Shown: one piece after another, positions 3 through 19,729 of the stretch
How positions within the stretch are numbered: the first letter of the stretch is position 1
How the letters are laid out: each line of letters starts with the position of its first letter
Source of the DNA: a virus
Reading direction: 5' to 3' (one strand)
Length of the DNA stretch: 41,430 nucleotides
IMG/VR virus record: IMGVR_UViG_3300026521_000336
Location: 1 to 41,430 of that record
Notes under the pieces: generated by a model
Database searches by the model: none
What the model was told of the DNA's origin: nothing
The model's input: the letters and a program-made list of their open reading frames with translations, nothing else
Program-made: the position numbers and the translations under genes

Positions 3-1091
3 TTTATATCTAACAACAAAGAACTTGCAGAAAAGATGAATAGCGTAAATAAAAAAATACTAATATTAGCAAAAGAGTATATAGGTAAAATGTTTAAAGG
101 AGAAGTAGATATAACTCATGCAGTATATTTAAAAATGTTTCATATACTATTAGCAAACAACAAGATACAGATAGAAGAACAAGATATAATAATGCTTGAT
201 GAGTGTGGAGATCTTAATCCTGTAACACTAGAAATATTCAAATTGTTAAAAGCAAATAAAAAGATAATGGTAGGTGACATTAGTCAAACAATCTACTCAT
301 TTAATGGCACAATAAACGGTTTTGAAGAAATGAGAAATGAAGGAATATTATTAGAATTAACACAATCATTTAGATGTTCAAAAGATATAGCAAAACGAGT
401 AGAAAAATTCATGCAAGTGCACTATGATGAGAATTTTAAATTCTCAGGAGTAGAACCAGATAAAGAACAAGAAAAAACAGTTGCATATATATCAAGAACA
501 AACTCATCTATGATTGGTTCTATGATTGAATTAATGAAGACCGGAGAAAAGTTCAATCTAGCAAGACAACCACAATCAATTTTTGAACTTATTCTAATTT
601 TATTATACCTAAAGCCAGGTGGAGAAATTAGACAAAAGCAATGGAAACATTTACAAGAAGATGTTGATTTGTGGAATATTGATGAATCGCTACAAAATGA
701 ATATAAGACATATATGTCATACATAGCATCAAAATATAATGATGATATAGATTTAAAGTCAGCATTAACAATAATAGGTACATATTCAAGAGAAGAAATA
801 TTTAAAGCATATGCTTACTCAAAGCAATGCAAAGAAGACAAAACAAAACACAAAATAACATTAACAACAAGCCATTCAAGTAAAGGATTAGAATTTTATA
901 AAGTATATATTCATGATGATCTAAATAAAACAATAGAAAAAATATTAGAAAAAGAACATGATAATAGAACAGAGACTGAACTAGAAGAAATTAGATTGTA
1001 CTATGTAGCATGTACTAGAGCAAGTCATGTTTTAATTAACGCAAAAATGCTAGATTATAAAATAAACAAAAAGGATAATAGATGGATATAA
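3..1091 (+). CDS. UvrD/Rep-family (SF1) DNA helicase, 3' part only
   Basis: ATP-dependent DNA helicase, probably for phage replication or recombination. The reading frame is open back to the window edge, so the true start and the Walker A motif lie outside; the ATG at 36 is internal. Visible SF1 motifs in order: motif II LDECGD (about residue 50 from that ATG), motif III GDISQTIYSFNG, motif IV LTQSFR, motif V TTSHSSKGLEF and motif VI LYYVACTRA near the C-terminus. The order and spacing are those of UvrD/Rep/PcrA, in a reduced phage form with a short 2B region. It heads a rightward cluster of small genes, which suggests the early/middle region. The last codons overlap the next small gene. The family call is strong; the exact role is inferred. 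Confidence 0.88.
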   Translation, partial: FISNNKELAEKMNSVNKKILILAKEYIGKMFKGEVDITHAVYLKMFHILLANNKIQIEEQDIIMLDECGDLNPVTLEIFKLLKANKKIMVGDISQTIYSFNGTINGFEEMRNEGILLELTQSFRCSKDIAKRVEKFMQVHYDENFKFSGVEPDKEQEKTVAYISRTNSSMIGSMIELMKTGEKFNLARQPQSIFELILILLYLKPGGEIRQKQWKHLQEDVDLWNIDESLQNEYKTYMSYIASKYNDDIDLKSALTIIGTYSREEIFKAYAYSKQCKEDKTKHKITLTTSHSSKGLEFYKVYIHDDLNKTIEKILEKEHDNRTETELEEIRLYYVACTRASHVLINAKMLDYKINKKDNRWI

Positions 1092-2914: not shown

Positions 2915-5900
2915 CTATCCAAACAGTTCTGCCGGATAAAATGTACCAATCTCTACTGGCGGTATACCGTTTATAAATTCAAATCCGCTACCACTTAAAT
3001 GTTGTCCAAAGGCTTTATATATCAAACTGCTATCAAATATAGTTTCAGGATGTTCTTCAAGGAAGCGTTGCATTAATAATGCAAAGAATATACCTGATGG
3101 ATTTGCTTTTAGTGTGGCTAAAATTACTTTTTGTATCCTTGTCCAGAATGCAGGGAATAATAAAATACCATAATCACTCAACACTTTCATTTCTTTAGGC
3201 ATATTAATTTTATAATCAACAAAAGACTCTAATGCTACCTGTATAGCTTCTTTTTTAGATTTACCTTGAGATATTAAAGTATCAAGTAACATTTTTCTAG
3301 ATATTATATCTACTGTTTGCATTGTAGAAGAACCAAATCTAACTAAAGCACTATCAGGTGTAGCTAAAAACTCAGATATATATTTAGCTATATCTTCTTT
3401 CTTGTTAGTCTTTATTCTTTTGCCAGCGTCCTCTAATCCTTCACCAAAAGTTTCAAGCATTTTAAAGTTTTTAGCACTTTTACCAGCAAACGCAATAATA
3501 TTCTCAACATTAAGATAATCAGGTCCACTTTGAGCTAACGTCTTAATAGCTTTAGCTAGTGCAGTTTTCTTACCATTTTCTTTCTTTAAAAACTTATTTA
3601 GTAGGTTCTCTATATCATTTTGTAATCCAGAAATAACAGATTCATCTTTATTCATAACCTCTATCGATAGAGAACCAAACATTCCTTCTTGCAACATCAT
3701 TCCATATGAGTGTTTAGCTATCTTATCTTTTACTATTTTTAATTGCTTATCTACATCTTTACCTTCATATTTAGCAACTTCAAGTTCAAGCTGTTTTAGT
3801 CTTAATTTTTCAAACTTTTTAAGTTCAATTATATTATCTTGAAACTTTTTAGGCATATCTTGTATAGGCATACCATATGCTAACAATATAGCTGTATTTG
3901 ATGTTACATCACCAATTAGCTTAGGAATATTAGTTACAGCCCAATGTATCTTAGTAAGCTTAACCATTTGTCTAATTGCATATGCTGATTTTCTAAGAAC
4001 AGCGTTATGTTCGAATAATACTGGATCCTCATATCCTAATGCTATATCTGAAAAATCTTTTCTAACCAAATCAACATGCTCATTGAATTGACCTATTCTT
4101 GATACTTTTGGTCTAACTTCATAGTATGTACCAATAAGTTCATTATCCTCAAGTATCTCTTTAGGTATAGAGCCTTTAGGTAATGACAACAACAATGGTC
4201 TATCTTCTACTTTCATCTTTTTAAGTGATTTATCAAATTCACTAACATCAACTTCTGTATCAATATATTTAGTCATAGTTTCACTAATCATTAAATCTCT
4301 TACAGCTTGAGTATCTTCTATTTCCATAAGCCTACCATATGCTCTATACAGAGCATCTCCAATACTAGTACTCAATCCTAACTCTTCTTTTTGTTCTTTT
4401 GTTAATACAATCTTTTCGAACTTACCTTTATTTGTTTTTAGTGATACAGAATTTTTAGCATTAGGTATAATCTTATTTGTAGGTACAATTATGTCATGTT
4501 GCAAATAGTTAATTGTGGTTCCTGCTCCATCTTGTACAGTTTCGTCTCGTCTATCTCTATATACAACACCATATTGCTTAGATTCAGGCTTAATTAAGAT
4601 CTTCCAACCAGATTCTTTATTATATACACTATTTAGCAAGTCTTTTTTATTTACAACTCTAAATTCTTTAGGAACTTCATAGTGTTCATATATAAGATTA
4701 TCTTTCTCTAGCATTTGATCTTTTGTCATACCATAAACACTATCATGTATACTTTTGATACCAGTTGAAGCATCAAATATAGTTGTAGCCAATTTAGGAT
4801 TATTTTTTAATAGATTAAATGCATTTTCGTATCCAGTTTTATTTATGTTTTCATTAGCACTAGTTTGGTTCTCTTTAATTGTGTATAGAGCCAATAAAGA
4901 ACCGAATAAATCTTTTTCTTCTTGATCATTATATTTTAATTGATCAAGATTATAAGCTACACCATCTTGTGGTTCTTTGTTGCCTGATAAAAACTCACTA
5001 ATACGCTTAATTGATCTTCTATTATATTGTGATATTTTATCTTCATATTCTTTTATAAGTGTATTTATATCACTATCTACATTATTACTATTTATTAGCT
5101 TACTTAATACATTATTCTTTATAAGATAAAATACAGGTGCTTGCACAAATGTATAATATATATCTTTTTGATCTTCTTTACTTATTTTTGATAATAACTT
5201 ATTCATTTTAGCAATAGCAGTATCTTCGAACTGCTTTCTTTCAGATGCAGCATTAATTGTAGCTGTTATAGCTTTGTTTAAATCTTCATAATTCTTAAAT
5301 CTACCCCAAGGATCAAGATATCCTTTAATACTAGATATCCAAGATGAAGATTCCCAATATTTAGTAGCTCTATCATATTGCATTTTATATATATCAAAAT
5401 TCTGATACATAAATTCATGAGCTTGTTTTGCTTTATTGCTAATAAAAGGCTCTGCAGTATTTTCGTATATATTGCCTATACCATTACTAATATTCTTATT
5501 TAATGCAAACAATGATTCATCTATTATCGAATAATTACTTACTGTATAATTTTTCTTTTTGTATTTATAATACATTTGTTCATTCAATGTTTGTGTAGCT
5601 AATTTTTTAGGCCTCTTTGGTTCTGTATAATCAGTATTTTCTTCTCCATACTCTTCATCTTCATATTGGTTCTTTATACTTTCAGAACCAGATGTGTTAT
5701 CACTTCTATTACCTAAATCTTTATTCTCTAAAAAAGCATCAGTAATCAAGTTTTTTAACTCTTCTTTATCTCTCTTTGCTAAATTGTTAAACAAGTCTTT
5801 AACCCACTTGCTAAACTTTTTCCACCAACCATAAGCTTTACCTTTTTGTTCAACTACTTGTTCACCTATAGCTTGAACTAACGCTTCTTCAGAACCCCAC

Positions 5901-8900
5901 TTTTTAATAGCTTCTTTTACTAATGTATTTTCTCTGAACATAGCTATATAATGGTGAGCATACTCATGCGGTAATGTATCTGTACTGGTTAATATACCAT
6001 TAACTAATACTGTTTTATTAACTATATCTGCTTGACCTTTAATATTATCACCTATACTATCAACATATTCAAGATTAATATCAGGATATATTTTCTTTAA
6101 TATCTTATCAAGTTCATTGTTTAATTTTTTATCAAAGTTCTTGTTTTTATTATTTTTGAACAATTCATTCTTATATTGATCTCTCATCTTTTTAGATAGT
6201 CTTGATGTAATTTTAGCAAGAGCTTCAACATCACTTTTTGCATCATGAGCTGATTCACTATTTATACCAAGCATATTAGCAACATATTGTTGATTTCTCT
6301 CTTTTGTTTTGATTATAGAACCATCTGGTTTATTGTATGTCTTAGGTTTATCTTTTGATCTTCTAAGAGTATAATTAGCCAACAATCTTGGATCCATAAC
6401 ATTAAAATTATCACTCAATAGTTTATCTACACCATCATATGAAGATAATATATTAAAATCAGACTTAAATCCATTATATGCTAACAATGGTATCTTTTTG
6501 TCTTCAGTTAAAGAACCAAGTTTTACAATAAGCTCATTTGAAATTGCATTATGATCATAATCTTTACCGTCAAATATACCATCGACATTATATTCTTTAT
6601 ATTTTTCTCTGTTTAATATCTCTTTATATGAATCAGCATTTGATGGCTTATAAGACATCTCAATTGGTTCTCCAATTTTTTCTAATCTACCAGTTCTCTT
6701 GTTTAACTTATATTTTTGTGCATACAATTGAAGCAATTCTTTCTCTTGACCACCTTTGCTTGAGTCATAATTGTATATGTAATTATTTTTAACATCAGGA
6801 CTAAATGTATTTTCAATGTCAAGAACTACAAATGGCTTACCAGATAGTACTGCATTAGAAAGCTCAATAGAATGTTTTTTCATAAATTTAGATATTTCAT
6901 CATTACTAAACTTTTTACTTTCTGACACATCATTATTAGAACCAGTAGGCAAACCTTTATTTTCATCAAGTATGTCTTGTGGTATATTTTTTGTCCATAA
7001 GTTATTTTCTATTTGTATATATTTATTTATTTTTAAGCTTTCTTCACTTTGCTCTGTATTATTGTTTTGTTCTTTAGTGTTTTTATTATTGATTCTATAA
7101 TCATTTTTAAGTACACCATCTTTATCTATGTTATAGCTTATCATATCATTATTAAATCCAAATAATTTATAGTTAATATCAAACCCTTGATTTATTATAT
7201 ATTTATCTATCAGTTCTTCTTTTGTTTTGATCTTTTGATTTGTTTTATTTATATAATTTAAAGCTTCTTTGCTATCATATAGTTTTAATTTAATTTGATC
7301 AGCAGAGCCAAAGTCTTTAGTATCTTCAAAATTAATGGCGTATGAATCGTATAATAATGCCATTTGTTCTTGAATATCATATCTCTTAGACACTTCAAAT
7401 GTAGCTTTTTGATATTCTTCTTCTAATATTGAATTATATATAGCTGTACCATGAGACGCATCATAAATATCACTTGATGCACTATTTAATGCTATTTTAT
7501 AATTCTTTAGATCAGACTCAGTATTGTTATATATTTTAGAACTAGGATCTAAAACAAATAATTTATCTTCTAATATTTTTATTCTATTTTCTAACTCTGC
7601 TACTGTTTTAATATGAGCATATTGAAGAATTCCTGAATCGATACCATGAACTCCTGACACAATAGGTATAAGTGCATTGTCTTGTTCTTTGTTAATTAGA
7701 AGCGGATTGCCAGATTCATAACCTAGCATAATTTGTCTATTTGATGTTATAGGCATACCATACTTTCTAATCATAGAATTATACCATTTTCTGTAGTTAT
7801 TAGTACCTTTAGCATATGCCTTTAGGTTATCTTCTGTATGCTCTTTACCATACAATATATGATCATGATTCAATTCAACACCATTGCTATCAAGTTTGCT
7901 ATCAGTTATTGCAAGCCAAGAACCAGCAGGAATAATATATTGTATAAATTTACCATTACCATAGCCATAGTATTTATTAGTTTTATGAACAACATCAGCA
8001 ATTTTGTAGTACATATTTTTAATAGCTTTTTTATTTCCACTAACAGCAGGATTAAATGCTTCTTGTAGCAATTCATACATTTTGCCTGTAACACCATTAT
8101 CTTTATCTGAAAAATAATCATTAATTACTGTATAAAATCCTTCTATTTGAGCAAGCTTTACTTCATTATTGCTATTTGAACCTTCTATTGTAGAATATTC
8201 ATCTAAATTATTATCTTTATAGAATTCTGAATTTTGCTTTTTAATTATATTTAACATAAAATCAAGTCTTTTTTGTCTATCTTTTGTTGAACCATTTGCT
8301 TTTACAAAAGACTTTATAACCTCTTCTGCCATATCATTGGCAGCAGATTTTGATGCTCCATCTTTACCAGCTTCATAGTTAGTAACCATTGTGATAGGCT
8401 TAAGCATATCTCTTAAACTTGAGAACAAACCTAATTCAACAAAAGGCATAAGCTGTTCATACACAGTTTCTTCAGTTTCTCCATCTATTTTATTATTATG
8501 TTGCTTTTCAATTTCATGTCTAAGTATTGCATATGCATCATCATAAATTTCATCTTCAGTTAATTCTCTGTTTTCATCTTTAGCTATTTGCATTCTGACT
8601 AATATATTAATGATATGCTTATCATTCTCTGGATCAGTACCTAAAGCTTGCAATAGCGATAAAACAACACCAGAAGCAGATGCATCAGGTTTGGTTCTAT
8701 ATGTTGTATATATATTATTTCCACTATTGTGTGTTCTCATATCATATATACCAGATAATGCTCCAAATGCTTCCCATACATTTTTAATTTTTAAATCAAT
8801 GTCAAGAATTTTATCGTCAACTTTAATTTTACCTATAGCTAATATTTTAAGTAATTTAGCTATTAATAGTGCTTGTTCTTTTGTATCAAGCTTTGTGTTT

Positions 8901-10645
8901 TTGATAGAACTAAAAATGTCAAGTAATGCATCAAGTGCTTTATTTACACCTTTATTTTCTATCATCTCTCTCTGCTCTATTTCTGTAGCATTAGCAGAAC
9001 CTGTAAACTCGTCAACTAATGATTCAATGATATTAAAATAAGCAGCACTTCCTCTTTCAACTTTATATCTTTTACCAACAACTATAGCTCGTGACATCTT
9101 ATCAGACACTTCATTTAGTGCTGTTGCAGTAGGAAGGTATCTTGTGCTCCTAAACATCATTAATTCTCTAATATATTCTTTACCATCTTTATATCTATTA
9201 TAGTTGCTTAAAAGTTCAATTAATGGAGTCTCTTTAGATATAGTTTTACCTGCTGTACCATTTTTTAATTCAGGAGATATAGAACCATTGTATGCTCCAA
9301 ATATAGCATTTTTGAGTTTAATATCTGTTATTCCTAATTTATTATATACTTGATTTAATGTGACCATTGGTTCTTCATTTTGATTATTATTGAACTCTTC
9401 AGCCATAAATTGAAGTAATGGATCAATAACTGGATTAACTCTTGCTACCCTATGTGATAAATTAGTCATTATTTTTTCAATAGTTTTAGGTACACCTAAT
9501 CCTTGTTTACCATCTTTACTATATCCTAAGTCTTTTGTCCAAAATTGCCTAATAAATCTAGCTGAAGGTTTTTTAGGTTTTCTTGTATTCTTCTTTTCCT
9601 CTTCATTTAGCTCATTCCATTCTGCAAATTCTTCTTTGTATTTATTTAATGTATTTATATAGTAATTGTTTGTTATATTCAATTGACTATTTACAGGAGT
9701 TGTTAATGTATTTATAGCTTGAGAGGCATTAAATGTATTATTGAATACCCTATACTTGTTAATAGCTTTAGAACCAAAAGAACCAGTATTTAACATAGAG
9801 TTTAATTCTTCTTTTGATGCACTTTTATCACTGTTTTTCATAAAAGTATCTAAATTTAATGTAACACCGTCAGCAATAATTGTTGAATCTGATGATATTT
9901 GCTCTCCATCAAGATTACGATATTCATGATTAATAACATTTGTATTTTCTAAAATCTTGATAAGAGGATCTCCATCACTATCTTTTATACCAGCTAATGC
10001 TTCAACTGCTGTTCTCCCTAATTGAGAATAAAAATTTTTATTTGATATTGGATCTGAATTGACTAAATACCCAGTGGCAACAGCTATCTGTCTGCCTATT
10101 GCTGGATACAAATTTAATGTATTTATTACTCTAGATCCATCTTTTGTTGTTAATATTGATGTTGTATGCTCATCTTCATCTTTGTTTAATTTTAATTTTT
10201 TTTGTATATTTATATCTGCTGAAACACCATTAACTATAGCATTAAAAGCTATACCTATAGCCCTCATTGTGGATCCAGCTATTATTGCATATTTTACTTG
10301 TTTTTCGTTATTTAATTCATTAAATTTTTGTTCATTAATGATACCATTAAATAATATATTATACTTAGAGTTTAAAGAAAATTTAAGATATCGCTCAATC
10401 TTATTAACTATCTTGTTATGACCAATAATTTTTCGTATATCTTTTTTTGCTTCATTTTGTTTAGTTTTGTTTATTTCACTAAATAGATCAAAGTAATGTT
10501 CTTCTTTTATACTTTGTATATTCCAGGCTAAAGGTTTAGAGCCACCTGAAGTATTGTCTATATCATTTATATCTGTTTTTACTTTAACAATTTTATTACC
10601 TATAAATAATTCAATTACTTTTTTACAATTTTCTACTTTACTCAC
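2915..10645 (-). CDS. N4-type virion RNA polymerase fused to DEDDh exonuclease and HExxH peptidase, 2576 aa
   Basis: Likely packaged in the capsid and ejected to transcribe early genes. Single-subunit RNAP motifs: A, DASASG at 654-659 (D654); B, R745, K749, M753, Y757 with exactly the T7 R-x3-K-x3-M-x3-Y spacing; C, H1000 and D1003 in VHGIDSG. The B-to-C gap of about 245 residues resembles the N4 virion enzyme more than T7. A second module is a DEDDh exonuclease: D1276/E1278, D1396 in NGFKSDF, H1467/D1472 in AHDAKSD. A third is a gluzincin-like peptidase, HEYAH at 1560-1564 with EEALVQAIGEQ downstream. The rest, to 2576, is helical and resembles large polyvalent phage proteins. GTG start with AAGGA seven bases upstream. 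N4's polymerase has about 1000 residues before its catalytic domain; here there are only about 300. One Cys in total (C7). Confidence 0.85.
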   Translation of the reverse strand: MSKVENCKKVIELFIGNKIVKVKTDINDIDNTSGGSKPLAWNIQSIKEEHYFDLFSEINKTKQNEAKKDIRKIIGHNKIVNKIERYLKFSLNSKYNILFNGIINEQKFNELNNEKQVKYAIIAGSTMRAIGIAFNAIVNGVSADINIQKKLKLNKDEDEHTTSILTTKDGSRVINTLNLYPAIGRQIAVATGYLVNSDPISNKNFYSQLGRTAVEALAGIKDSDGDPLIKILENTNVINHEYRNLDGEQISSDSTIIADGVTLNLDTFMKNSDKSASKEELNSMLNTGSFGSKAINKYRVFNNTFNASQAINTLTTPVNSQLNITNNYYINTLNKYKEEFAEWNELNEEEKKNTRKPKKPSARFIRQFWTKDLGYSKDGKQGLGVPKTIEKIMTNLSHRVARVNPVIDPLLQFMAEEFNNNQNEEPMVTLNQVYNKLGITDIKLKNAIFGAYNGSISPELKNGTAGKTISKETPLIELLSNYNRYKDGKEYIRELMMFRSTRYLPTATALNEVSDKMSRAIVVGKRYKVERGSAAYFNIIESLVDEFTGSANATEIEQREMIENKGVNKALDALLDIFSSIKNTKLDTKEQALLIAKLLKILAIGKIKVDDKILDIDLKIKNVWEAFGALSGIYDMRTHNSGNNIYTTYRTKPDASASGVVLSLLQALGTDPENDKHIINILVRMQIAKDENRELTEDEIYDDAYAILRHEIEKQHNNKIDGETEETVYEQLMPFVELGLFSSLRDMLKPITMVTNYEAGKDGASKSAANDMAEEVIKSFVKANGSTKDRQKRLDFMLNIIKKQNSEFYKDNNLDEYSTIEGSNSNNEVKLAQIEGFYTVINDYFSDKDNGVTGKMYELLQEAFNPAVSGNKKAIKNMYYKIADVVHKTNKYYGYGNGKFIQYIIPAGSWLAITDSKLDSNGVELNHDHILYGKEHTEDNLKAYAKGTNNYRKWYNSMIRKYGMPITSNRQIMLGYESGNPLLINKEQDNALIPIVSGVHGIDSGILQYAHIKTVAELENRIKILEDKLFVLDPSSKIYNNTESDLKNYKIALNSASSDIYDASHGTAIYNSILEEEYQKATFEVSKRYDIQEQMALLYDSYAINFEDTKDFGSADQIKLKLYDSKEALNYINKTNQKIKTKEELIDKYIINQGFDINYKLFGFNNDMISYNIDKDGVLKNDYRINNKNTKEQNNNTEQSEESLKINKYIQIENNLWTKNIPQDILDENKGLPTGSNNDVSESKKFSNDEISKFMKKHSIELSNAVLSGKPFVVLDIENTFSPDVKNNYIYNYDSSKGGQEKELLQLYAQKYKLNKRTGRLEKIGEPIEMSYKPSNADSYKEILNREKYKEYNVDGIFDGKDYDHNAISNELIVKLGSLTEDKKIPLLAYNGFKSDFNILSSYDGVDKLLSDNFNVMDPRLLANYTLRRSKDKPKTYNKPDGSIIKTKERNQQYVANMLGINSESAHDAKSDVEALAKITSRLSKKMRDQYKNELFKNNKNKNFDKKLNNELDKILKKIYPDINLEYVDSIGDNIKGQADIVNKTVLVNGILTSTDTLPHEYAHHYIAMFRENTLVKEAIKKWGSEEALVQAIGEQVVEQKGKAYGWWKKFSKWVKDLFNNLAKRDKEELKNLITDAFLENKDLGNRSDNTSGSESIKNQYEDEEYGEENTDYTEPKRPKKLATQTLNEQMYYKYKKKNYTVSNYSIIDESLFALNKNISNGIGNIYENTAEPFISNKAKQAHEFMYQNFDIYKMQYDRATKYWESSSWISSIKGYLDPWGRFKNYEDLNKAITATINAASERKQFEDTAIAKMNKLLSKISKEDQKDIYYTFVQAPVFYLIKNNVLSKLINSNNVDSDINTLIKEYEDKISQYNRRSIKRISEFLSGNKEPQDGVAYNLDQLKYNDQEEKDLFGSLLALYTIKENQTSANENINKTGYENAFNLLKNNPKLATTIFDASTGIKSIHDSVYGMTKDQMLEKDNLIYEHYEVPKEFRVVNKKDLLNSVYNKESGWKILIKPESKQYGVVYRDRRDETVQDGAGTTINYLQHDIIVPTNKIIPNAKNSVSLKTNKGKFEKIVLTKEQKEELGLSTSIGDALYRAYGRLMEIEDTQAVRDLMISETMTKYIDTEVDVSEFDKSLKKMKVEDRPLLLSLPKGSIPKEILEDNELIGTYYEVRPKVSRIGQFNEHVDLVRKDFSDIALGYEDPVLFEHNAVLRKSAYAIRQMVKLTKIHWAVTNIPKLIGDVTSNTAILLAYGMPIQDMPKKFQDNIIELKKFEKLRLKQLELEVAKYEGKDVDKQLKIVKDKIAKHSYGMMLQEGMFGSLSIEVMNKDESVISGLQNDIENLLNKFLKKENGKKTALAKAIKTLAQSGPDYLNVENIIAFAGKSAKNFKMLETFGEGLEDAGKRIKTNKKEDIAKYISEFLATPDSALVRFGSSTMQTVDIISRKMLLDTLISQGKSKKEAIQVALESFVDYKINMPKEMKVLSDYGILLFPAFWTRIQKVILATLKANPSGIFFALLMQRFLEEHPETIFDSSLIYKAFGQHLSGSGFEFINGIPPVEIGTFYPAELFG

Positions 10646-10654
10646 TAAATATCC

Positions 10655-13600
10655 TTATAATTTTTTTAAACATAAGTTAAATAGAAATTTAACTTCTTCT
10701 TTTGATTCTTCATCGACTTCTTCAATTATATCAAAGATTTCATCAAAACTTTCATTGGACAATTGTTCTGATGTACTAAAATCTATAATTTCTTTGTTTT
10801 GTTTTTTTAATGCTTCAAGTTTATTAACAAGTTTTTCTCTTTTTGCTTTTTCTTCTGATGTCAAATCTTCTTGTGTATATTTGTAGTCAAGATCTTTAAT
10901 GTATGCTTTTGTTAATATTTGTTTATTACGATTACTTTCAATAAGTTTATTTACTTTTTTTGAAGTTAATAGTGTTTTTTTTGTTTTATACTTATTTCTA
11001 TTTTCCTTATCAGTAGTATTTCTAGAATTTTTACTTATAATCTCAATTCTTTTTCTAAATACATCAGCTTGTTTGCTAGTAATATCTCCTACTTTTTCTG
11101 CAATATCTATCATTTTAAGTATATGTTTTTTTTCTTCTTTTGTATCTATAGATGTTTTTTTTGCATTGTTCATTATGGTATTAAATGCTTTTTGGTTAAA
11201 TCTTTCAAGTAGTTTTAAGTCATTAGAAAAAATATCCTTATCTTTGGCACTTTTTAATGTATTTTGTCCAAACTTAGCCAACATTGACTGCATAACTTTA
11301 TTTTTACGATATAAAGGAAGATTACTATCACTAAAAACATCATAAAGCTCAACAATTGACTTGCTTAACTTTGTTTTCTGTTCATTATTTGATAGACTAT
11401 CCATAAGTTTAACAGCAATATCAGATAAGATATTTTCATACTCATTTTCATTAATCCTACCAAGAGTATATGCTGAATTTGCAGCAATAAGATGATCTTC
11501 TAGCTCATTGTAGTATTTATAGTTTTTCTTTTTGTTTATTTCATTTTTTACATTATTTAAAACTTTATTAGAGTGTCTTACAGAATTAGATACAAGTCTA
11601 ATTTTATATTCACCTGGTTCTAGCTCTGTTTCGATATTAGCTAATTTTGTTCTAGTTTTTACTCTTATATTTAATACATTATCTATAGCTTTTTTTACAG
11701 CTAAACTAGCATCAGGATGATTATATGCTCTTTCTAATGCTTCATCAGAGTAATTTTTTATATTATCAATAATTTTACTTTTTGTGCCAAATGATTTTAT
11801 TTTATTAATAAATCCTTTAGGATCTTCATTGAACTCATTAACATTAATATCTTCATTGTTAAATAATTTAACTCCAGAACCAGTTGCTATAGCTTCTTGT
11901 CTAGCTAACTTGTGATTATATAGTCTTTCTTCTCTATCCTTTATCTTATTATTATATTCTTTTATCTTATTATCTATTGAAACTATTTGATTGTCTATAA
12001 GATCTTTAGACTCTTCAAAGACTTTCTTTTCGTTAGGCTTAATAAATTTATTATAAAGATCGTTATTTCTTGAATGTTCATGAAACGGATTATTGTTGTT
12101 ATCTATAAGTTTTGTTTCTTCATTATTGCTTACAGCGTCCTGTTTTATTACTTTGATTTTCAAATCAAGAGGTGCATTCAGATATGCTTTTGCTAATCTC
12201 TTTCTGTAATCATCATCAGTAATCTTATCTTTTACATCATCATTATTGATTGCTTTTTGAACCATGTTTGGATCAAGCAGTGCTATTATTTCTGGAGAAA
12301 TTGATGCACTTATATTGTTTCTTATACTATCTGCAATATAGTTATTAAATTTATCATCTTTAAAAGCTTCATATATAGCGATATCTCTTAAATGCTCACC
12401 AAAAGATTTAACTTCAGGTATTGATGATTCAATCATCTCGTCAACTGATTTTGCTCTTTTTAACACTATTTTTGTATCATTCATTAATTCAGTATTAGCT
12501 TTTGAAGTATCTATATCATTTTGCTCATTATTAATATAGAATTCAAATTGATCATCATCAAGATTATTTACAATATTCTCAAGGTTTTTTATTTTTCTTT
12601 TTTGTGCTATATGATTAAACAGTGCATTTGTAAATGCCTTAGAACCTGATATACTAGCAGGTACAGTATGCATTCCTATACCAGCAGCAGCTCCAGCTAT
12701 AGCTGCCTGTCTTGCTTCTAATTGATTTTTAGTATCTTTCAATATGTCCATAACATCTTTATTATCGATACCGTATTGCTCTCCGATTAACTGTCCCCAT
12801 TGTTGAACATATTCTTGAAGACCTTCCTCTGTAGCACTTGTCAAAAAAGATCTTGATTTATCAAGTAGTCTAGTAGTAAATTCTTTTTTTGTTGCGTTTG
12901 ATGTTTTATTTATAGCTGATTTAAGAGCTTTACTTATACCTTTTACATTAATTATATCATCGAATGCTACCTTATCAAGTAATGTGAATGGCAATTGAGA
13001 CATATATAAAGCAACAGCCTCTCCAGCACTAACAGTTGGATCTTGTCCAGCAGCTTTCTTTGCTTTCATTCTTTCGTTGATTATCTGATTGGTAAGTTCA
13101 AGGTTTACAGCTTCAACACCAGCACCTTTAGCTATTAGGTTTAGTGCTTTTAATGTATTCTCACTATCCTTAAAAGTATCATAAACTTTAAGCTCTTTAT
13201 GGTTCATTGTCTTTTTAGTTTTAGCTATCAAGTTAGCAATCTCTTCAGTAGTAGAACCAGCTTTTTTAGCTTCACTTACAGCATTAACTAATTTTAAAGC
13301 TCTGGCTGTTCCAGCTACTTCACCTGCACCTACACTCATTGCAGCCATATAAGGTAAACTTTCACCTATAAATGAAGGTGCTGCTTGTACTGCATCAAAT
13401 AATCCAGTAAGAATATCTCCTCTTCTAAAAGCAGCATCAGCTTCGTTTACCTTACTGGCTCCATAGTGTCTATCATAGCCAGCAACTTTATCAGCCCACT
13501 CTTGATTATAATCATTAAGTAAAGTATTATCACCAGGCGTAAACAAATCAAGAACAGCATCAGCAGTGCCAGTAACTAAACCAAGTGTACTTGCCTGTAT

Positions 13601-14629
13601 AGCATCAATAAAATTGCTATCTTTTGGTCTTTGCATATATTGTTGATACATAAGCTTAGAACGATCAAGATTCTTAGCATAGTCTTCTTTAGAACCAGTA
13701 TCTAATCCTAACAAGTCAGAATCATATAATTCAGTATATCCTGTGCCATAATTTATTCTAGATGCTTTATCTCTATTCATTCTGCCATCTGGAGTAAGGA
13801 CTATACCATAATCAACAACTCTATGATTTAAATTTTCATCAAGTGAATGCCATAAGTTCTCCCAATTTTCTGCTCCAGCAAATCTTTTCTCAGATACAAT
13901 CTCGTATCCATCTTTTATATATTGATCTTTATTTCTACCATAAGCACTAATTCTATCTGTTCCGACTTTATAGATATATTTAGTAGAACCATCTGGATTA
14001 TATCCGTCAAACTTACGAAGATAATATACTACATTTTGAGCATTAGGATCGTCTTCTGCTGTTAAGTATTGATCAATTAAATCTTGCCTTGTAACATCTT
14101 TTGCCTTTATAAAATCTTTATTGTTTGCATCATACAATTTACCATTTCTTTCTATGAGAAAATCATTACTATGATCTATCCAATCTCCTTGACCAAAATC
14201 AGCTATATTTTCAGTAGCTTCTAATAGCCAATCAGTAGCATGTATTACTTTATTTGCATAAGTTTTGGCTCTTATCATTGCATCGCTGTCATTTATCAAA
14301 GAACCATCTTGCTCATACTTTAATGGAGCCTTACGATATATCTCATTTCGCTTTAGTTCAGCAGCTCTTGCTAATCTGTCTTTTTTTTCTAAAGCAGTTA
14401 TAGATTGTTCAGTCTCATAATTACTTTGCTGTATTTGATCATCTATATTTTTTATTATGGAATTGGTTAATAGTTCTGTATAGTCATTATCATAATCGTT
14501 ATTTATTGATACCGTATCGCCATAGTCATCAACATATGATGTAATATCTGGTTCTTGAGTATCTGTTATATTGTAATCATGATTATCATTGTCGTAGTTA
14601 TTTTTAAATGTAGTAATATTCTCTGTCAT
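10655..14629 (-). CDS. Large internal (DNA-ejection) virion protein, 1324 aa
   Basis: Placed directly before the vRNAP gene (nine bases apart), where N4-like phages carry large internal proteins. The N-terminal 60 residues are Asp/Asn/Tyr-rich. Around 340-450 and 640-665 are Ala/Gly-rich amphipathic or hydrophobic segments (AAIAGAAAGIG), possible membrane-interacting parts. An ATEEGLQEYVQ block at about 599-609 is typical of giant phage virion proteins. The second half is long, charged, coiled-coil helices. The only Cys is five residues from the C-terminus. No transglycosylase or protease motif is seen. Start ATG at 14629 with AGGA upstream, embedded in an inverted repeat described separately. 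By position it is an N4 gp51 analogue; function inferred. Confidence 0.68.
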   Translation of the reverse strand: MTENITTFKNNYDNDNHDYNITDTQEPDITSYVDDYGDTVSINNDYDNDYTELLTNSIIKNIDDQIQQSNYETEQSITALEKKDRLARAAELKRNEIYRKAPLKYEQDGSLINDSDAMIRAKTYANKVIHATDWLLEATENIADFGQGDWIDHSNDFLIERNGKLYDANNKDFIKAKDVTRQDLIDQYLTAEDDPNAQNVVYYLRKFDGYNPDGSTKYIYKVGTDRISAYGRNKDQYIKDGYEIVSEKRFAGAENWENLWHSLDENLNHRVVDYGIVLTPDGRMNRDKASRINYGTGYTELYDSDLLGLDTGSKEDYAKNLDRSKLMYQQYMQRPKDSNFIDAIQASTLGLVTGTADAVLDLFTPGDNTLLNDYNQEWADKVAGYDRHYGASKVNEADAAFRRGDILTGLFDAVQAAPSFIGESLPYMAAMSVGAGEVAGTARALKLVNAVSEAKKAGSTTEEIANLIAKTKKTMNHKELKVYDTFKDSENTLKALNLIAKGAGVEAVNLELTNQIINERMKAKKAAGQDPTVSAGEAVALYMSQLPFTLLDKVAFDDIINVKGISKALKSAINKTSNATKKEFTTRLLDKSRSFLTSATEEGLQEYVQQWGQLIGEQYGIDNKDVMDILKDTKNQLEARQAAIAGAAAGIGMHTVPASISGSKAFTNALFNHIAQKRKIKNLENIVNNLDDDQFEFYINNEQNDIDTSKANTELMNDTKIVLKRAKSVDEMIESSIPEVKSFGEHLRDIAIYEAFKDDKFNNYIADSIRNNISASISPEIIALLDPNMVQKAINNDDVKDKITDDDYRKRLAKAYLNAPLDLKIKVIKQDAVSNNEETKLIDNNNNPFHEHSRNNDLYNKFIKPNEKKVFEESKDLIDNQIVSIDNKIKEYNNKIKDREERLYNHKLARQEAIATGSGVKLFNNEDINVNEFNEDPKGFINKIKSFGTKSKIIDNIKNYSDEALERAYNHPDASLAVKKAIDNVLNIRVKTRTKLANIETELEPGEYKIRLVSNSVRHSNKVLNNVKNEINKKKNYKYYNELEDHLIAANSAYTLGRINENEYENILSDIAVKLMDSLSNNEQKTKLSKSIVELYDVFSDSNLPLYRKNKVMQSMLAKFGQNTLKSAKDKDIFSNDLKLLERFNQKAFNTIMNNAKKTSIDTKEEKKHILKMIDIAEKVGDITSKQADVFRKRIEIISKNSRNTTDKENRNKYKTKKTLLTSKKVNKLIESNRNKQILTKAYIKDLDYKYTQEDLTSEEKAKREKLVNKLEALKKQNKEIIDFSTSEQLSNESFDEIFDIIEEVDEESKEEVKFLFNLCLKKL

Positions 14630-14687: not shown

Positions 14688-16118
14688 TCATTTATTATTT
14701 GTTGCTAGATCTTTCATTAATTTTTTAATAGTTAAATCTCCTTTTTTAAGATCTTGTTGAAGTTTTTGTATTCTAAGAAGATCTTCTTCAGATTTTACTT
14801 TTTTAGATCTTAACTTAATTAGTTCGTTTTTCAACTTATTGTTATCTATTTGTACTTTCTCAAGAACTTTATATTTTGTATCGATTGCTTTCTCAAATAT
14901 ATAATCTGCTTTTTTCTTTTTATCTTTTGTTTGTTGAGCTTTTATTTCTTTTATTGCTTGGATCTTAGCATTATGATTACTAAGAGAATCATCCATAGCT
15001 TTCCTTGCTACTTTAATTTTGGCTACTTTCTCATATGTATTTAGATTTGCATCATTAACTATGTTGTCTAATATTGGCTTAAATTTTGCATATGTTTCTT
15101 TATAATAATCTTTATTTGACTTTAATGTATGTTTAGATATGTCTTTCTTTCCGTATACTGGCTTATAAAATTGTTTTTCAATAGTATTAACTTCTTGTTC
15201 AACTTTGTTGTTGTTTGCTATGATTCCATCATTAACTTTAAGGTGAGAACTAAGAGCATTAACTCTCTTTCTTGCTTGCTCATAAGGATTGTCTTTTATC
15301 ATATTTGTATCAACGGCACGTAATGTTTTACCAAAATCCAGACCATCTATCATTCGCTTTGTAGCCTCTTTCTCTTCATTATTGTTGATAATATGGTAAA
15401 AAGGATTCCACTCGGTAAGCAAATTCAATGTTCCTTTTGCCAATGGAGTGACACCACTGTCAGCAGCGACACCAGCAACACTCTCTATCCCAGTTTGGTT
15501 CTTCCATTTATCAAATTCATCACCTTTCAATCCGAACATCTTAGGGTGTTGTTCTATAAACTTGTTTTGTGCATCTTGTAATTCAGACTGGTTCTTATAC
15601 TTAGAGCCAAGATTAGCATATTGAGTATATAAATCTCTATATTGCTCATCTTCTCGATATTGTAACGGTTTGACTTTAGCCGCTATAGCTTGACCTTTAT
15701 GTGATGTCCAAAAATCAGTAGCTTTTTGATCTTCATGTTTCTGGCCAACAATATTGTTTTTATCTTCTACAGTTTCGGTAGTATTTATTGTATCTTCTAC
15801 CGGTTTATATATGTCGCCTACAGCAGCAAGAATGGCATTATTTTTTTTCTTATCATTTGCATACTTCCTATTTGTTCTTGCATTTTGAGCGGCTATTGTT
15901 GCTGCATTTCTTTTGTTCGCAGCATCTTCTCTTAATTTAGCTATTGCCATAGCGTTTGCTAGCCTATCTTTGTTTTCTTGCAATTCAGCTGATCTATTTT
16001 CATCAGTAATTTGTTTTTTGTACATATTGCTAATAGCAGATGCGAGACCAGATGCATCAGATGTGTATCCTGGTTCTCTCAATGCAGGAGTTTTAATTCT
16101 CTGTATAAATGAACTCAT
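14688..16118 (-). CDS. Internal virion protein, coiled-coil, 476 aa
   Basis: ATG at 16118 with AAGGA twelve bases upstream. The product is highly charged, without cysteine. The N-terminus is Ala-rich helical (about 50-95, AMAIAKLREDAANKRNAATIAAQNA) and the C-terminal third is a long basic coiled coil (about 370-476). A short YKPVED/YGKKDI region lies between. It sits between a small Gly-rich protein and the 1324-residue protein, in the position and with the composition of T7 gp15-like or N4 gp52-like ejection proteins. No enzymatic motif was found. Assignment is by context and composition, not by a recognised domain. Confidence 0.6.
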   Translation of the reverse strand: MSSFIQRIKTPALREPGYTSDASGLASAISNMYKKQITDENRSAELQENKDRLANAMAIAKLREDAANKRNAATIAAQNARTNRKYANDKKKNNAILAAVGDIYKPVEDTINTTETVEDKNNIVGQKHEDQKATDFWTSHKGQAIAAKVKPLQYREDEQYRDLYTQYANLGSKYKNQSELQDAQNKFIEQHPKMFGLKGDEFDKWKNQTGIESVAGVAADSGVTPLAKGTLNLLTEWNPFYHIINNNEEKEATKRMIDGLDFGKTLRAVDTNMIKDNPYEQARKRVNALSSHLKVNDGIIANNNKVEQEVNTIEKQFYKPVYGKKDISKHTLKSNKDYYKETYAKFKPILDNIVNDANLNTYEKVAKIKVARKAMDDSLSNHNAKIQAIKEIKAQQTKDKKKKADYIFEKAIDTKYKVLEKVQIDNNKLKNELIKLRSKKVKSEEDLLRIQKLQQDLKKGDLTIKKLMKDLATNNK

Positions 16119-16135
16119 ATTTTATTCCTTAAGAA

Positions 16136-16684
16136 CTAAACAGTAGTAGTAGCACTATTGCTTGGGTCTTCATATTTTTTTGTAGCAAATTGTTGAGCCA
16201 CTCGCTTATTTATACCTTCTTGTTTCTTTTTAGCTGCAACTGCGTCATTATATTGCTTCTCAACAAGATCTTGTTGTCTTTTAGCTAGTTTCTGATTAAA
16301 CTTCATATTTTTATAAGATTGATATCCGGCAAATAAATTTGCTGCACCATTTAATCCACCTATGCCATCCCAGGCTTTACCTAAAATTGATGAACCACCT
16401 AAACCACTATTATTGTTTTGTATTTTTATTGAATTTAAGTCTTGAATGCCATTATAGTCCATACCACCAATATCAACCTTGCCGTTATTGTTTAAGTCCA
16501 TTGCTACATTCCTAACAGAACCAGGATCAAAACTAGTCAAATCGCTATTCCATGAAGTTTTACCGTTTATTGAACCTTGATACATTGGAGTATTGACTGA
16601 AGTGTTTTGCGGTAAACTATTACCTTCACTAAAAATATTACCTATACCTGAAAATAAATTTCCTAAACCTGAAATTAGTCCCAT
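16136..16684 (-). CDS. Small Gly-rich internal virion protein, 182 aa
   Basis: Begins MGLISGLGNLFSGIGN, an amphipathic Gly/Phe-rich N-terminus like those of T7 gp14-type ejection proteins that insert in the outer membrane. Around residues 62-75 it has DLNNNGKVDIGGMD, which resembles an EF-hand/dockerin calcium loop (D1, N3, N5, G6, D9) but lacks the usual acidic residue at loop position 12. A Gly/Ala-rich segment (about 105-122) precedes a charged helix (KLAKRQQDLVEKQYNDAVAAKKK). No Cys. AAAGGA lies ten bases before the ATG. It is the first gene of the block of presumed ejected proteins. Confidence 0.58.
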   Translation of the reverse strand: MGLISGLGNLFSGIGNIFSEGNSLPQNTSVNTPMYQGSINGKTSWNSDLTSFDPGSVRNVAMDLNNNGKVDIGGMDYNGIQDLNSIKIQNNNSGLGGSSILGKAWDGIGGLNGAANLFAGYQSYKNMKFNQKLAKRQQDLVEKQYNDAVAAKKKQEGINKRVAQQFATKKYEDPSNSATTTV

Positions 16685-16720
16685 ATTAAAAAAATCCTTT
16701 CTTTATAATATATAAGTACA

Positions 16721-16726
16721 ATTATA
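16721..16726 (-). promoter_or_regulatory. Candidate late promoter -10 (TATAAT)
   Basis: In the 58-base gap upstream of the 182-residue gene the leftward strand reads GATATAATTG. No good -35 hexamer is present 16-18 bases upstream. It is one of nine TATAAT boxes, each lying in a gap before a late gene or cluster. Confidence 0.35.
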
Positions 16727-16742
16727 TCTAAAATAATATAAA

Positions 16743-19145
16743 TCATCCAGAAACAATATTTATTCTTTTATTTACTTCAGTATCAACACTAAACAACTGG
16801 TCATAATTATAAGAACCAGAAAGAACAGATTCGTATAATGCATCTGGAGAATGAGTTGCACTAAATGAAGACATTGCTGTTTGATCAAGTTTCAATACAA
16901 TATTTTTATCAGTATCAATTATAGAATTTATTTTGTCTATTGCTTTTTGTTTAGATGAATTATCAACTAAATCTTTTGCTTCTTGATTATGTATGTATTG
17001 CATAACATCATTTGTAAAAGATGTTATATCAGTAGCAAGTTTTAAGAAATTTTCAGCAGTAAGATTTATAATTGAAGAGAAATCATTATAAACCATAGAT
17101 ACTAATTCAAAAATTAAATTAAATAATTTAGAATCTATAGCTTTTAATACATTTTGAACAACTAATGATATGACATAATTAATTATAGCGTTAACTATTA
17201 TGGATATTATATTACCTATACCATATGTTAAAATTCCTATGACAATAGATATAATAAGTGATAAAAATTTGTCATACCAGTGTGTTTTAACAACTACTTC
17301 TGCATAAGCAACAAACATTGTACCGTATTCTTTAACTATAACATATGTTGAAAAACGTAAATTATTTAATAATTCTAAAGGAATAGGAACTAATGGAAAA
17401 ATATCATCACCACTATTTTCTCCAGAAGATGAAGACATCCACTTACCATTAAGTCCAATTGTAAAATGTTGGCTATTAATGTTGATTAGTTGTTCTATCA
17501 AGTATATTGAAATTTCAATATAGTATGGAGTATTATCTTCCTTGTATTTTTGTATAAAAATAGAAGACCCTGTTACATCAACTGGAAGCGTTTCATCATC
17601 ACTAAGAGCATTAACACTAGAGTTAGAATATCTGTATGTGTATGTATCTGCATCACCATAATCTGAGTAGTACGAATCATCATTAAATAGACTAGATCCT
17701 TTAAAAAAAAGCCAATTAGGAGCATTATCTCTTCTATCTATGAACCATTGCTTATTTCGTTCAACAGTGAATAATCTATTCTCAACAAATATTGCTGATG
17801 TCCTAGAATACTTACCATCTTTTATTTTTGTACTAGGCAAAATTACGCCATTATCTCCATTAAATTCTCCGTCATCATATACAGGATCTTTAATCTCTAT
17901 TTCTATATTTGTTACTATATCATCTTCTTCTATTTTAACAATTTTTGAACTACTATAATTATTACTATCTGTGCAATAATATTTTAGAAGATCATATAAA
18001 AAAATATTATATCTAGACATTTTCAATCTATTTTTATTTTTCCACCAAGTTGATATTTCTTCAGTTACAACATATTTATTTTCATCTACTCTTGATTTAA
18101 TTAATACTCTTCTTGGAAAGTTTTGAGCTTCTTCTGCAGTATACGTACCTGGTTTTATATAATATATGTCACGAAAGTATGCTCCAGTAAATAAGTACAT
18201 ATTATCTAAATCGTCATTTTTTAATGTATCAATTAAATCTTTTTGTGATAATCCATATTTTTTTAATAGTTTTTTCGTGTTATTCTCATCAGTTTTTAAC
18301 TCATTTTTTCTTTTTAAACATATAATAGGGCTAACAGGCTCTATATCATCTCTCATAGAATAAAAAGCACTATCATCTTCGTCTGCATCAGAAACAAAAA
18401 CTCTATAGTCAAGATTTGTTTTTTCTGGATAATCTACGGTATATCCATTATCTATTGCATAATCAGTATCGATTGTATAATAAATAAGAACATTATTTTC
18501 GTATATGCTAACCGGTTCTATGAATTCGATATTTTCAATATCGTCATTTGATGAGTTTGATAGTGTGAACTTTATTTCGCTATTGCTATCATTAGTATAT
18601 TCATAAAAAATATGATTATACACAGCTTTACAGCTCGGATCCTCTCCATCACAATCATCATTATCGCAATCATCATTATCAGTACAGCATTTACATAAAA
18701 CAATACCATTTTCTCCACTACAACATAAATCATCTTTATTAGAGCCAGTGTATTTTGTTATTACTGTAAAATCATTACAATAGAATTCATATTTATATTT
18801 TTTTTGAAGAATATCTTTTACTGCAATTGATAATGCTTTTTTCTTGAGCTCAACCTTTACTATACTTACAACTTTGTCATCTACTTTGTTTAAAATTTCA
18901 TTTTTTATAGATTCATCATCTTTTATTATAACATTCGTATTTGCAGCTTTATAGGAAGCTCCATATTTTTCAAGATATTCTTCCTTAAATCTAGTCCTAT
19001 ATGTATGTTCGAAAAAGAAAAATTGCTTATTATATGCAGACATATTGTCTGACTGTAGCATTATATTTACTTTTGAATCATGTATAGTTTTATCTTTTGA
19101 ATATAAATTAACATAACTAAGAGATGTAAAAGTTTTATGTCCCAT
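16743..19145 (-). CDS. Large tail/structural protein with Cys/Asp-rich insert and membrane-like segment, 800 aa
   Basis: Starts ATG at 19145, directly after the previous stop, with GAAGGA about 13 bases upstream. The first 130 residues are mixed alpha/beta. Residues about 135-168 form a Cys- and Asp-rich insert (CKCCTDNDDCDNDDCDG) with nine cysteines, suggesting a metal-binding or disulfide-stabilised loop. The middle is beta-rich. Around 628-670 is a long hydrophobic Ile/Val-rich stretch (LSLIISIVIGILTYGIGNII), followed by helices. Position between capsid and ejection genes suggests a tail tube/nozzle or tape-measure-like role; N4 gp54 is a positional candidate. I do not recognise a defined family. 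Confidence 0.6.
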   Translation of the reverse strand: MGHKTFTSLSYVNLYSKDKTIHDSKVNIMLQSDNMSAYNKQFFFFEHTYRTRFKEEYLEKYGASYKAANTNVIIKDDESIKNEILNKVDDKVVSIVKVELKKKALSIAVKDILQKKYKYEFYCNDFTVITKYTGSNKDDLCCSGENGIVLCKCCTDNDDCDNDDCDGEDPSCKAVYNHIFYEYTNDSNSEIKFTLSNSSNDDIENIEFIEPVSIYENNVLIYYTIDTDYAIDNGYTVDYPEKTNLDYRVFVSDADEDDSAFYSMRDDIEPVSPIICLKRKNELKTDENNTKKLLKKYGLSQKDLIDTLKNDDLDNMYLFTGAYFRDIYYIKPGTYTAEEAQNFPRRVLIKSRVDENKYVVTEEISTWWKNKNRLKMSRYNIFLYDLLKYYCTDSNNYSSSKIVKIEEDDIVTNIEIEIKDPVYDDGEFNGDNGVILPSTKIKDGKYSRTSAIFVENRLFTVERNKQWFIDRRDNAPNWLFFKGSSLFNDDSYYSDYGDADTYTYRYSNSSVNALSDDETLPVDVTGSSIFIQKYKEDNTPYYIEISIYLIEQLININSQHFTIGLNGKWMSSSSGENSGDDIFPLVPIPLELLNNLRFSTYVIVKEYGTMFVAYAEVVVKTHWYDKFLSLIISIVIGILTYGIGNIISIIVNAIINYVISLVVQNVLKAIDSKLFNLIFELVSMVYNDFSSIINLTAENFLKLATDITSFTNDVMQYIHNQEAKDLVDNSSKQKAIDKINSIIDTDKNIVLKLDQTAMSSFSATHSPDALYESVLSGSYNYDQLFSVDTEVNKRINIVSG

Positions 19146-19727
19146 TTAGTATATATTTCCTTCAGTTAGATCATGCACAATATTTGATTTAATAATTCTA
19201 CCTTTTGCACATAAAAGCCATTGAGTATTATTATCTGGATAAAACGTAGAACCAATGATTAGATTATTAACTTCAGAAGTGTTTCCTATAGATCGTTCTT
19301 TTTCATTAATAGCAGCATACATAACATAGTTTGCATATGAATATCCATTATCATGTTGAGAAAAACAAAAAGTAGAATCGCTATTATCTATAGTAAACTC
19401 AACTATAGTATGACTATCTACTGATGTAAATTGTCCTGTTATTTCAAGTGGTTCTGCTCCACTGTCATTACGATTTCCAGATAACAGAACCAGTTTATAA
19501 TATGTTGCTAATTTAACAGCTTCTATTGAATTAATTTTAACATCAAAAACTATAGTTGAAAATTGTTCAGATTCATCTATAAAATAATCAAATTCTCTTG
19601 AAGCGTTAGATATATTGTATCCAAGCATTTCATCAGCAATTGTATCGTCTTTAAACATATCTGCTGCTATTATATCTCTAAGTGTTAATTTTAATCTATC
19701 ATCTTCTTTATAGAATGTATTTTGCAT
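19146..19727 (-). CDS. Structural protein, 193 aa (tail/neck)
   Basis: An upstream in-frame start at 19799 exists, but the ATG at 19727 is preferred. It lies just after the stop of the previous gene, with GGAGA seven bases upstream inside that gene's last codons, so the two are translationally coupled. The product (MQNTFYKEDDRLKLTLRDI...) is acidic and beta-rich, with no signal peptide. Its stop directly abuts the ATG of the 800-residue gene. No family is recognised. By context it is a tail-completion or tail-tube component encoded with its neighbours. Confidence 0.6.
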   Translation of the reverse strand: MQNTFYKEDDRLKLTLRDIIAADMFKDDTIADEMLGYNISNASREFDYFIDESEQFSTIVFDVKINSIEAVKLATYYKLVLLSGNRNDSGAEPLEITGQFTSVDSHTIVEFTIDNSDSTFCFSQHDNGYSYANYVMYAAINEKERSIGNTSEVNNLIIGSTFYPDNNTQWLLCAKGRIIKSNIVHDLTEGNIY

Positions 19728-19729
19728 TG

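What the first reader, a model, noticed from the sequence alone, without database searches (positions are those of the whole stretch)
2915..10645. Virion RNA polymerase fused to a DEDDh exonuclease and a zinc peptidase
RNAP motifs A (D654), B (R745-K749-M753-Y757) and C (H1000, D1003) are followed in the same chain by DnaQ-type exonuclease residues (D1276, E1278, D1396, H1467, D1472) and an HEYAH metallopeptidase site (1560-1564). In N4 the virion polymerase is about 3500 residues with a roughly 1000-residue N-terminal domain; here the catalytic part starts near residue 300 and effector domains follow. The enzyme enters the cell with the first DNA, so the exonuclease could attack host nucleic acid or trim DNA, and the protease could act on host defence proteins or release the polymerase. 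This looks like a polyvalent injected protein.
Basis: partly seen in the sequence, partly recalled or inferred. Interest (0 to 1): 0.78.

Follow-up and report, generated by a model that had tools for sequence, protein, structure and literature searches.

The report
Injected phage RNA polymerase carrying exonuclease
A phage protein of the N4 type, an RNA polymerase packed in the virus particle and sent into the bacterium first, carries a DNA/RNA-chewing exonuclease inserted ahead of the zinc-peptidase domain that all such polymerases have, an addition I found described nowhere.

Summary
The 2576-aa ORF (2915-10645, minus) is real and is a distant N4-type virion RNA polymerase. Its first ~1130 residues align over their whole length to the N4 catalytic domain (hhalign 99.7%, E 4e-24), and a clade profile hits T7 RNAP directly. 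Motifs A (D654) and B (R745/K749/Y757) are as stated. Motif C is not H1000/D1003 but D1062 (= N4 D1948, T7 D812). Residues 1246-1500 are a DEDDh exonuclease: five catalytic residues conserved, PADLOC DEDDh hit, predicted fold with 50 of 50 best rows of exonuclease-fold proteins. Residues ~1505-1645 are a zincin (HEYAH). The peptidase is not new: Iyer et al. 2017 report one in every N4-like vRNAP, and all examined here have one HExxH. The exonuclease is the unusual part. It is found only in three related phages (one clade, 100/100), absent from six relatives, absent at sequence level from 50,697 phage records and from one species-genome scan, and under purifying selection. N4's N-terminal injection region is absent from this chain; a separate 1324-aa gene just upstream probably carries it. 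Best reading: a polyvalent injected protein with a lineage-specific exonuclease effector. Its target is unknown.

The parts
2915..10645 (-). Complete split-type N4-like virion RNA polymerase ORF, 2576 aa, GTG start
   Evidence: end-to-end relatives; phrog_2206 'virion RNA polymerase' E 3.5e-22 at residues 2245-2552
7256..10645 (-). Single-subunit RNAP catalytic domain, residues 1-1130
   Evidence: hhalign to N4-like vRNAPs: global 99.7% E 3.9e-24, local 98.2% E 5.6e-14; profile hits T7 RNAP in PDB, best five rows
9140..9142 (-). R502, counterpart of N4 R1421 (mini-vRNAP R424, TxxGR element)
8684..8686 (-). Motif A catalytic D654 (DASASG) = N4 D1556 (mini D559)
   Evidence: invariant in nine relatives
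8375..8413 (-). Motif B R745-K749-M753-Y757 = N4 R1663/K1667/Y1675
7637..7648 (-). H1000-G-I-D1003: conserved element before motif C, counterpart of T7 'VHSQDGSHL'; not motif C
7460..7462 (-). True motif C, D1062 (DIYDAS) = N4 D1948 (mini D951) = T7 D812
6146..6910 (-). DEDDh 3'-5' exonuclease domain, residues 1246-1500 (D1276, E1278, D1396, H1467, D1472)
   Evidence: dN/dS 0.155 against L001
5711..6133 (-). Zincin metallopeptidase domain, about residues 1505-1645, HEYAH 1560-1564, likely third ligand E1586/E1587
5954..5968 (-). HEYAH zinc-binding motif
   Evidence: invariant in 24 aligned members
2915..5548 (-). vRNAP C-terminal domain (needed for encapsidation in N4), about residues 1700-2576
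   Evidence: phrog_2206 hit; strongest conserved part; N4 role quoted in PMC4496689 ref 78
10655..14629 (-). Separate 1324-aa gene just upstream; probable counterpart of N4 vRNAP N-terminal (injection) region
   Evidence: hhalign of nine upstream proteins to N4-like N-terminal regions 85.7% E 5.4e-6, reversed controls 0.1%; same position in all nine relatives

Best explanation
This is the virion RNA polymerase of an N4-like short-tailed phage, built as a polyvalent injected protein. The C-terminal domain packs it in the head (inferred from N4). It enters the cell with the first DNA, and the N-terminal ~1130 residues transcribe the early genes as a T7/N4-type single-subunit RNAP. Behind the polymerase this lineage gained a DEDDh 3'-5' exonuclease, placed between the RNAP and the zincin peptidase that all N4-type vRNAPs carry. 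The most likely role of the exonuclease is as an effector delivered at entry that shortens nucleic acid from 3' ends in the new host: host or defence-related single-stranded DNA, RNA or short oligonucleotide signals. The peptidase either processes the chain, freeing domains, or cuts host proteins. Shown here by computation: domain identities, order, clade distribution, purifying selection. Inferred: packaging, injection, catalytic activity. Not shown: targets (I put the host/defence-effector role itself at about 0.45). N4's injection region is probably made as a separate protein from the gene just upstream.
For: RNAP: controls. Exonuclease: 251-aa model, pLDDT 71, pTM 0.72; E. coli ExoI Z 11.7, Orn/REXO2 10.8, RNase T 10.4, Cap18 9.7, all 50 rows exonuclease-fold proteins; Foldseek ExoI 6e-4, RNase T 9e-4; PADLOC DEDDh E 3.4e-5; NCBIfam Pol III epsilon E 1.3e-3; all five residues kept at 42% identity; dN/dS 0.155. 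Peptidase. Clade: exonuclease-bearing rows one clade at 100/100. N4 roles: PMC4496689, PMC5512222.
Against: No experiment; the phage is uncultured and nothing shows that the protein is in virions. The exonuclease model rests on three sequences and only two of five models folded. No substrate evidence: an effector role is not separable from trimming of phage nucleic acid or a transcription role. The RNAP fold was not predicted. The peptidase Z is modest (6.6), and its sequence profile does not join the HELVH peptidases of N4-like vRNAPs.
Confidence: 0.72

Rival explanations
1. The exonuclease serves the phage's own DNA: it trims 3' ends of the entering genome or helps early DNA handling while the vRNAP sits on the first DNA in the cell.
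For: N4 vRNAP leaves the head ahead of the DNA and acts on the first ~500 bp (PMC4496689). Closest folds include E. coli ExoI and RNase T, which act on ssDNA 3' ends. No second relative of this exonuclease was seen among ORFs of the window, L001 or L002 stretches.
Against: Six clade relatives and all Schitoviridae checked work without it. The genome ends of these phages are not known.
Confidence: 0.2
2. The exonuclease acts on the polymerase's own transcripts (3' trimming or proofreading of stalled RNA), as exonucleases do for DNA polymerases and for the coronavirus replicase.
For: It follows the RNAP domain in one chain (parts list), and DEDDh enzymes such as Orn and RNase T act on RNA.
Against: A linker of about 115 poorly conserved residues (76% identity to L001, the least in the chain) separates the domains; relatives lack it; no known single-subunit RNAP proofreads this way (my knowledge).
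Confidence: 0.12
3. The exonuclease is a passive or decayed passenger with no activity.
For: It is restricted to three sequences.
Against: All catalytic residues kept at 42% identity and dN/dS 0.155, like the RNAP's 0.119.
Confidence: 0.05

Closest known systems
Escherichia phage N4 virion RNA polymerase gp50 (PMC4496689; Schitoviridae hallmark)
   Same: T7-type RNAP core with aligned motifs, one HExxH peptidase downstream, conserved C-terminal domain, gene between structural and replication modules
   Different: N4: 3500 aa in one chain with ~1000-residue N-terminal region, HELVH peptidase, no exonuclease. Here: 2576 aa, N-terminal region not in the chain, HEYAH peptidase, DEDDh exonuclease inserted
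Alteromonas phages vB_AmeP_PT11-V19 and R22Y vRNAPs (2082-2083 aa)
   Same: Nearest cultured relatives found; same split layout with a ~1000-aa gene just upstream; same RNAP elements
   Different: No exonuclease; HEIVH peptidase; about 20% identity
Polyvalent proteins (Iyer et al. 2017, PMC5512222)
   Same: Multi-domain injected proteins with RNAP, zincin MPTase and varied effector domains; N4-like RNAPs are included there
   Different: The main text mentions no DnaQ or DEDD domain; ART, PBECR RNase and lysozyme fusions are listed
DEDDh exonucleases (ExoI, Orn/REXO2, RNase T, DnaQ, Cap18)
   Same: Fold, D-E-D-H-D residues and spacing
   Different: Fused inside a virion RNAP; no close sequence relative found outside three phages

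Membership tests
N4-type virion RNA polymerase | Single-subunit RNAP domain with motifs A, B, C homologous to N4 mini-vRNAP | tested here: met
   hhalign 99.7% E 3.9e-24 with D654, R745/K749/Y757, D1062 aligned; T7 RNAP hit
N4-type virion RNA polymerase | Conserved C-terminal domain | tested here: met
   phrog_2206 E 3.5e-22 at profile 3131-3385 of 3406; tblastn to 113 phage records, mostly this region
N4-type virion RNA polymerase | Zincin MPTase downstream of the RNAP | tested here: met
   HEYAH at 1560, zincin fold; profile link to the HELVH type not found
N4-type virion RNA polymerase | ~1000-residue N-terminal region in the same chain (typical of Schitoviridae; not needed for catalysis) | tested here: not met
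   RNAP alignment starts at residue 1; a probable counterpart is a separate gene. Cultured Alteromonas phages annotated as vRNAP-bearing share this layout, so I file it as a split-type variant, not as a canonical N4 vRNAP
N4-type virion RNA polymerase | Packaged in the virion and injected | not testable with these tools
   Needs virion proteomics
DEDDh exonuclease | D-x-E, D, H-x4-D catalytic set | tested here: met
   D1276, E1278, D1396, H1467, D1472, kept in L001 and L002
DEDDh exonuclease | RNase H-like exonuclease fold | tested here: met
   Z up to 11.7, 50 of 50 rows exonuclease-fold proteins
DEDDh exonuclease | Metal-dependent 3'-5' nuclease activity | not testable with these tools
   Needs an assay
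Zincin metallopeptidase | HExxH helix after a three-stranded sheet, downstream acidic ligand | tested here: met
   Model order H17-30, E35-39, E48-51, E56-60, H68-80; core pLDDT 85-94; top rows IrrE, SprT/SPRTN-like, ArdC, selecase; E1587 invariant. Z is modest (6.6)
Polyvalent protein | Unrelated enzymatic domains in one phage or plasmid protein delivered with DNA | tested here: inconclusive
   Domains met; delivery not testable here

The most novel reading that the evidence does not exclude
A single-subunit RNA polymerase with its own in-chain 3'-5' exonuclease that edits or trims its transcripts, which would be the first such proofreading or RNA-trimming arrangement in a DNA-dependent single-subunit RNAP.
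Probability: 0.1. Interest if true: 0.85.

Novelty: new variant of a known kind. Interest (0 to 1): 0.5.

Why it matters
Polyvalent injected proteins are thought to be how phages act on a cell before any gene is expressed, but few effector domains have known targets. A catalytically intact exonuclease that one clade has gained inside an otherwise conserved injected polymerase gives a clean with/without comparison. The split layout also turns N4's N-terminal region into a separate protein in this clade, so injection and transcription could be studied apart. A published survey removed vRNAPs shorter than 2500 aa (PMC10654107), which would have hidden most members of this clade.

Tried and rejected
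Plain phmmer of the whole protein against PDB: nothing. Pfam on the whole chain and on the exonuclease alone: nothing. Stop-codon read-through joining the upstream gene to the vRNAP, as suggested for rare split vRNAPs in PMC10654107: in frame in five of nine relatives, out of frame in four, so not the general case. Exonuclease as a copy of the phage replication exonuclease: no match to N4 gp42 or relatives, nor to other ORFs in the window, L001 or L002. A direct profile link of HEYAH to HELVH peptidases: not found. An apparent exonuclease-peptidase pair in L033 was only the peptidase plus a chance extension. Three attempts at a joint exonuclease-peptidase alignment misplaced L002, so the domains were folded apart. 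Genome scans for the exonuclease and for the C-terminal domain gave no relative; these scans use short peptide patterns and miss distant relatives.

Full report
The window is a 41,430-base virus record with 28% GC in the gene of interest. Its minus-strand genes follow the N4 plan: terminase, portal (phrog_1216, E 1e-186), major head protein, tail proteins, then the vRNAP gene last before oppositely oriented replication genes such as a UvrD-like helicase. N4 has a similar order around gp50.

Polymerase. Single-sequence searches see only the C-terminal domain (phrog_2206, residues 2245-2552, E 3.5e-22). With nine relatives aligned the first ~1130 residues match the catalytic part of N4-like vRNAPs over their full length (global 99.7%, E 3.9e-24; local 98.2%, E 5.6e-14), and the same profile finds T7 RNAP as the best five PDB sequences (E 0.004-0.008). 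Reversed profiles give 0.1-0.2%. Motif C is D1062: N4 D1948 is mini-vRNAP D951, and the T7 alignment places 'iihDd' on 'LIHDSF'. H1000 and D1003 are invariant but align to T7 'VHSQDGSHL'; H784 of T7 in that stretch is known for ribose discrimination together with Y639 (my knowledge), and the counterparts here would be H1000 and Y757.

Exonuclease. Residues 1246-1500 hold DIE (1276-1278), D1396 in YNGFKSDF and H1467-x4-D1472. All are kept in L002 at 42% identity. A PADLOC DEDDh model hits at E 3.4e-5 and NCBIfam Pol III epsilon at E 1.3e-3. The predicted model is fair (pLDDT 71, pTM 0.72; two of five models folded). Its 50 best rows are exonuclease-fold proteins, almost all DEDDh enzymes with a few exonuclease domains of DNA polymerases and DinG (ExoI Z 11.7). 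dN/dS against L001 is 0.155, near the RNAP's 0.119. Sequence searches find it nowhere else: no tblastn hit in 50,697 phage records, only L001 and L002 in viral contigs, none in a pattern-based scan of species genomes.

Peptidase. HEYAH at 1560-1564 lies in a module found in 33 viral loci, some in other vRNAPs (L022-L024, L029, L050) and many in giant unrelated phage proteins. The predicted core (pLDDT 85-94) is helix, three strands, HExxH helix, and the best structural rows are zincins: IrrE/PprI, SprT-like, ArdC, selecase and lethal factor. Every vRNAP examined has exactly one HExxH after the RNAP, in agreement with Iyer et al. 2017 (PMC5512222). The peptidase is therefore expected. Its type varies: HEYAH in the window and L001, HEIVH in their sister L002, which points to exchange of the module within the clade.

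Distribution. Trees of the RNAP and of the C-terminal part both put window, L001 and L002 in one clade (100/100) inside a group of nine split-type vRNAPs apart from Schitoviridae. The six others lack the exonuclease and have a short linker there. One gain at the base of the three is the simplest reading; loss elsewhere is not excluded.

Split layout. All nine relatives have a separate 911-1324 aa gene that ends within about 16 bases of the vRNAP start or overlaps it. Its profile matches the N-terminal region of N4-like vRNAPs weakly but above controls (85.7%, E 5.4e-6; reversed 0.1%). In N4 the N-terminal region is needed for genome injection and the C-terminal one for encapsidation (unpublished data cited in PMC4496689). 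An AAGGA ribosome-binding-like sequence overlaps the upstream stop codon in the window, and the two genes are out of frame in four relatives, so read-through is not the general explanation. This part is suggestive, not proven.

How it most likely works. By analogy with N4 (PMC4496689), the chain is packed through its C-terminal domain, leaves the head before the genome, and transcribes early genes from the first DNA to enter. The extra exonuclease and the peptidase then reach the cytoplasm in a few copies before any phage gene is expressed. An enzyme present in such low amount and gained by one lineage fits a counter-defence or host-takeover effector better than an essential step, since close relatives do without it. 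That step is inference.

Verdict. The fusion is real and the architecture is a new variant of the known polyvalent vRNAP. The exonuclease is the surprising part. Its substrate, and whether it acts on host, on defence signals, on phage DNA or on transcripts, cannot be settled from sequence.

Noticed in passing
L002:14900-15660 (about residues 1640-1890 of its vRNAP): L002's vRNAP has about 220 extra residues between peptidase and C-terminal domain that the window lacks; possibly another inserted domain.
   Followed up: no
L050:3135-10466: A different 2444-aa protein with ssRNAP-like motif B (RSLFKEPFMTFNY) and IHDAI near its C-terminus followed by a terminal HEYAH peptidase: another RNAP-peptidase order.
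   Followed up: partly
L030:2-18049: A giant open frame of 6016 aa carrying the HEYAH module, in an unrelated-looking phage.
   Followed up: no
window 14688-21253: Four neighbouring late-region ORFs (476, 182, 800, 507 aa) match no PHROG family; virion proteins of this clade are largely undescribed.
   Followed up: no
window 36-1091: UvrD-like helicase ORF starts only at profile position 322 of 776, so it is probably cut by the window edge or split.
   Followed up: no
PMC10654107 methods: The N4-like virus survey discarded vRNAPs under 2500 aa, which would exclude split-type vRNAPs of 2014-2140 aa such as L022, L029, L054 and L061.
   Followed up: partly
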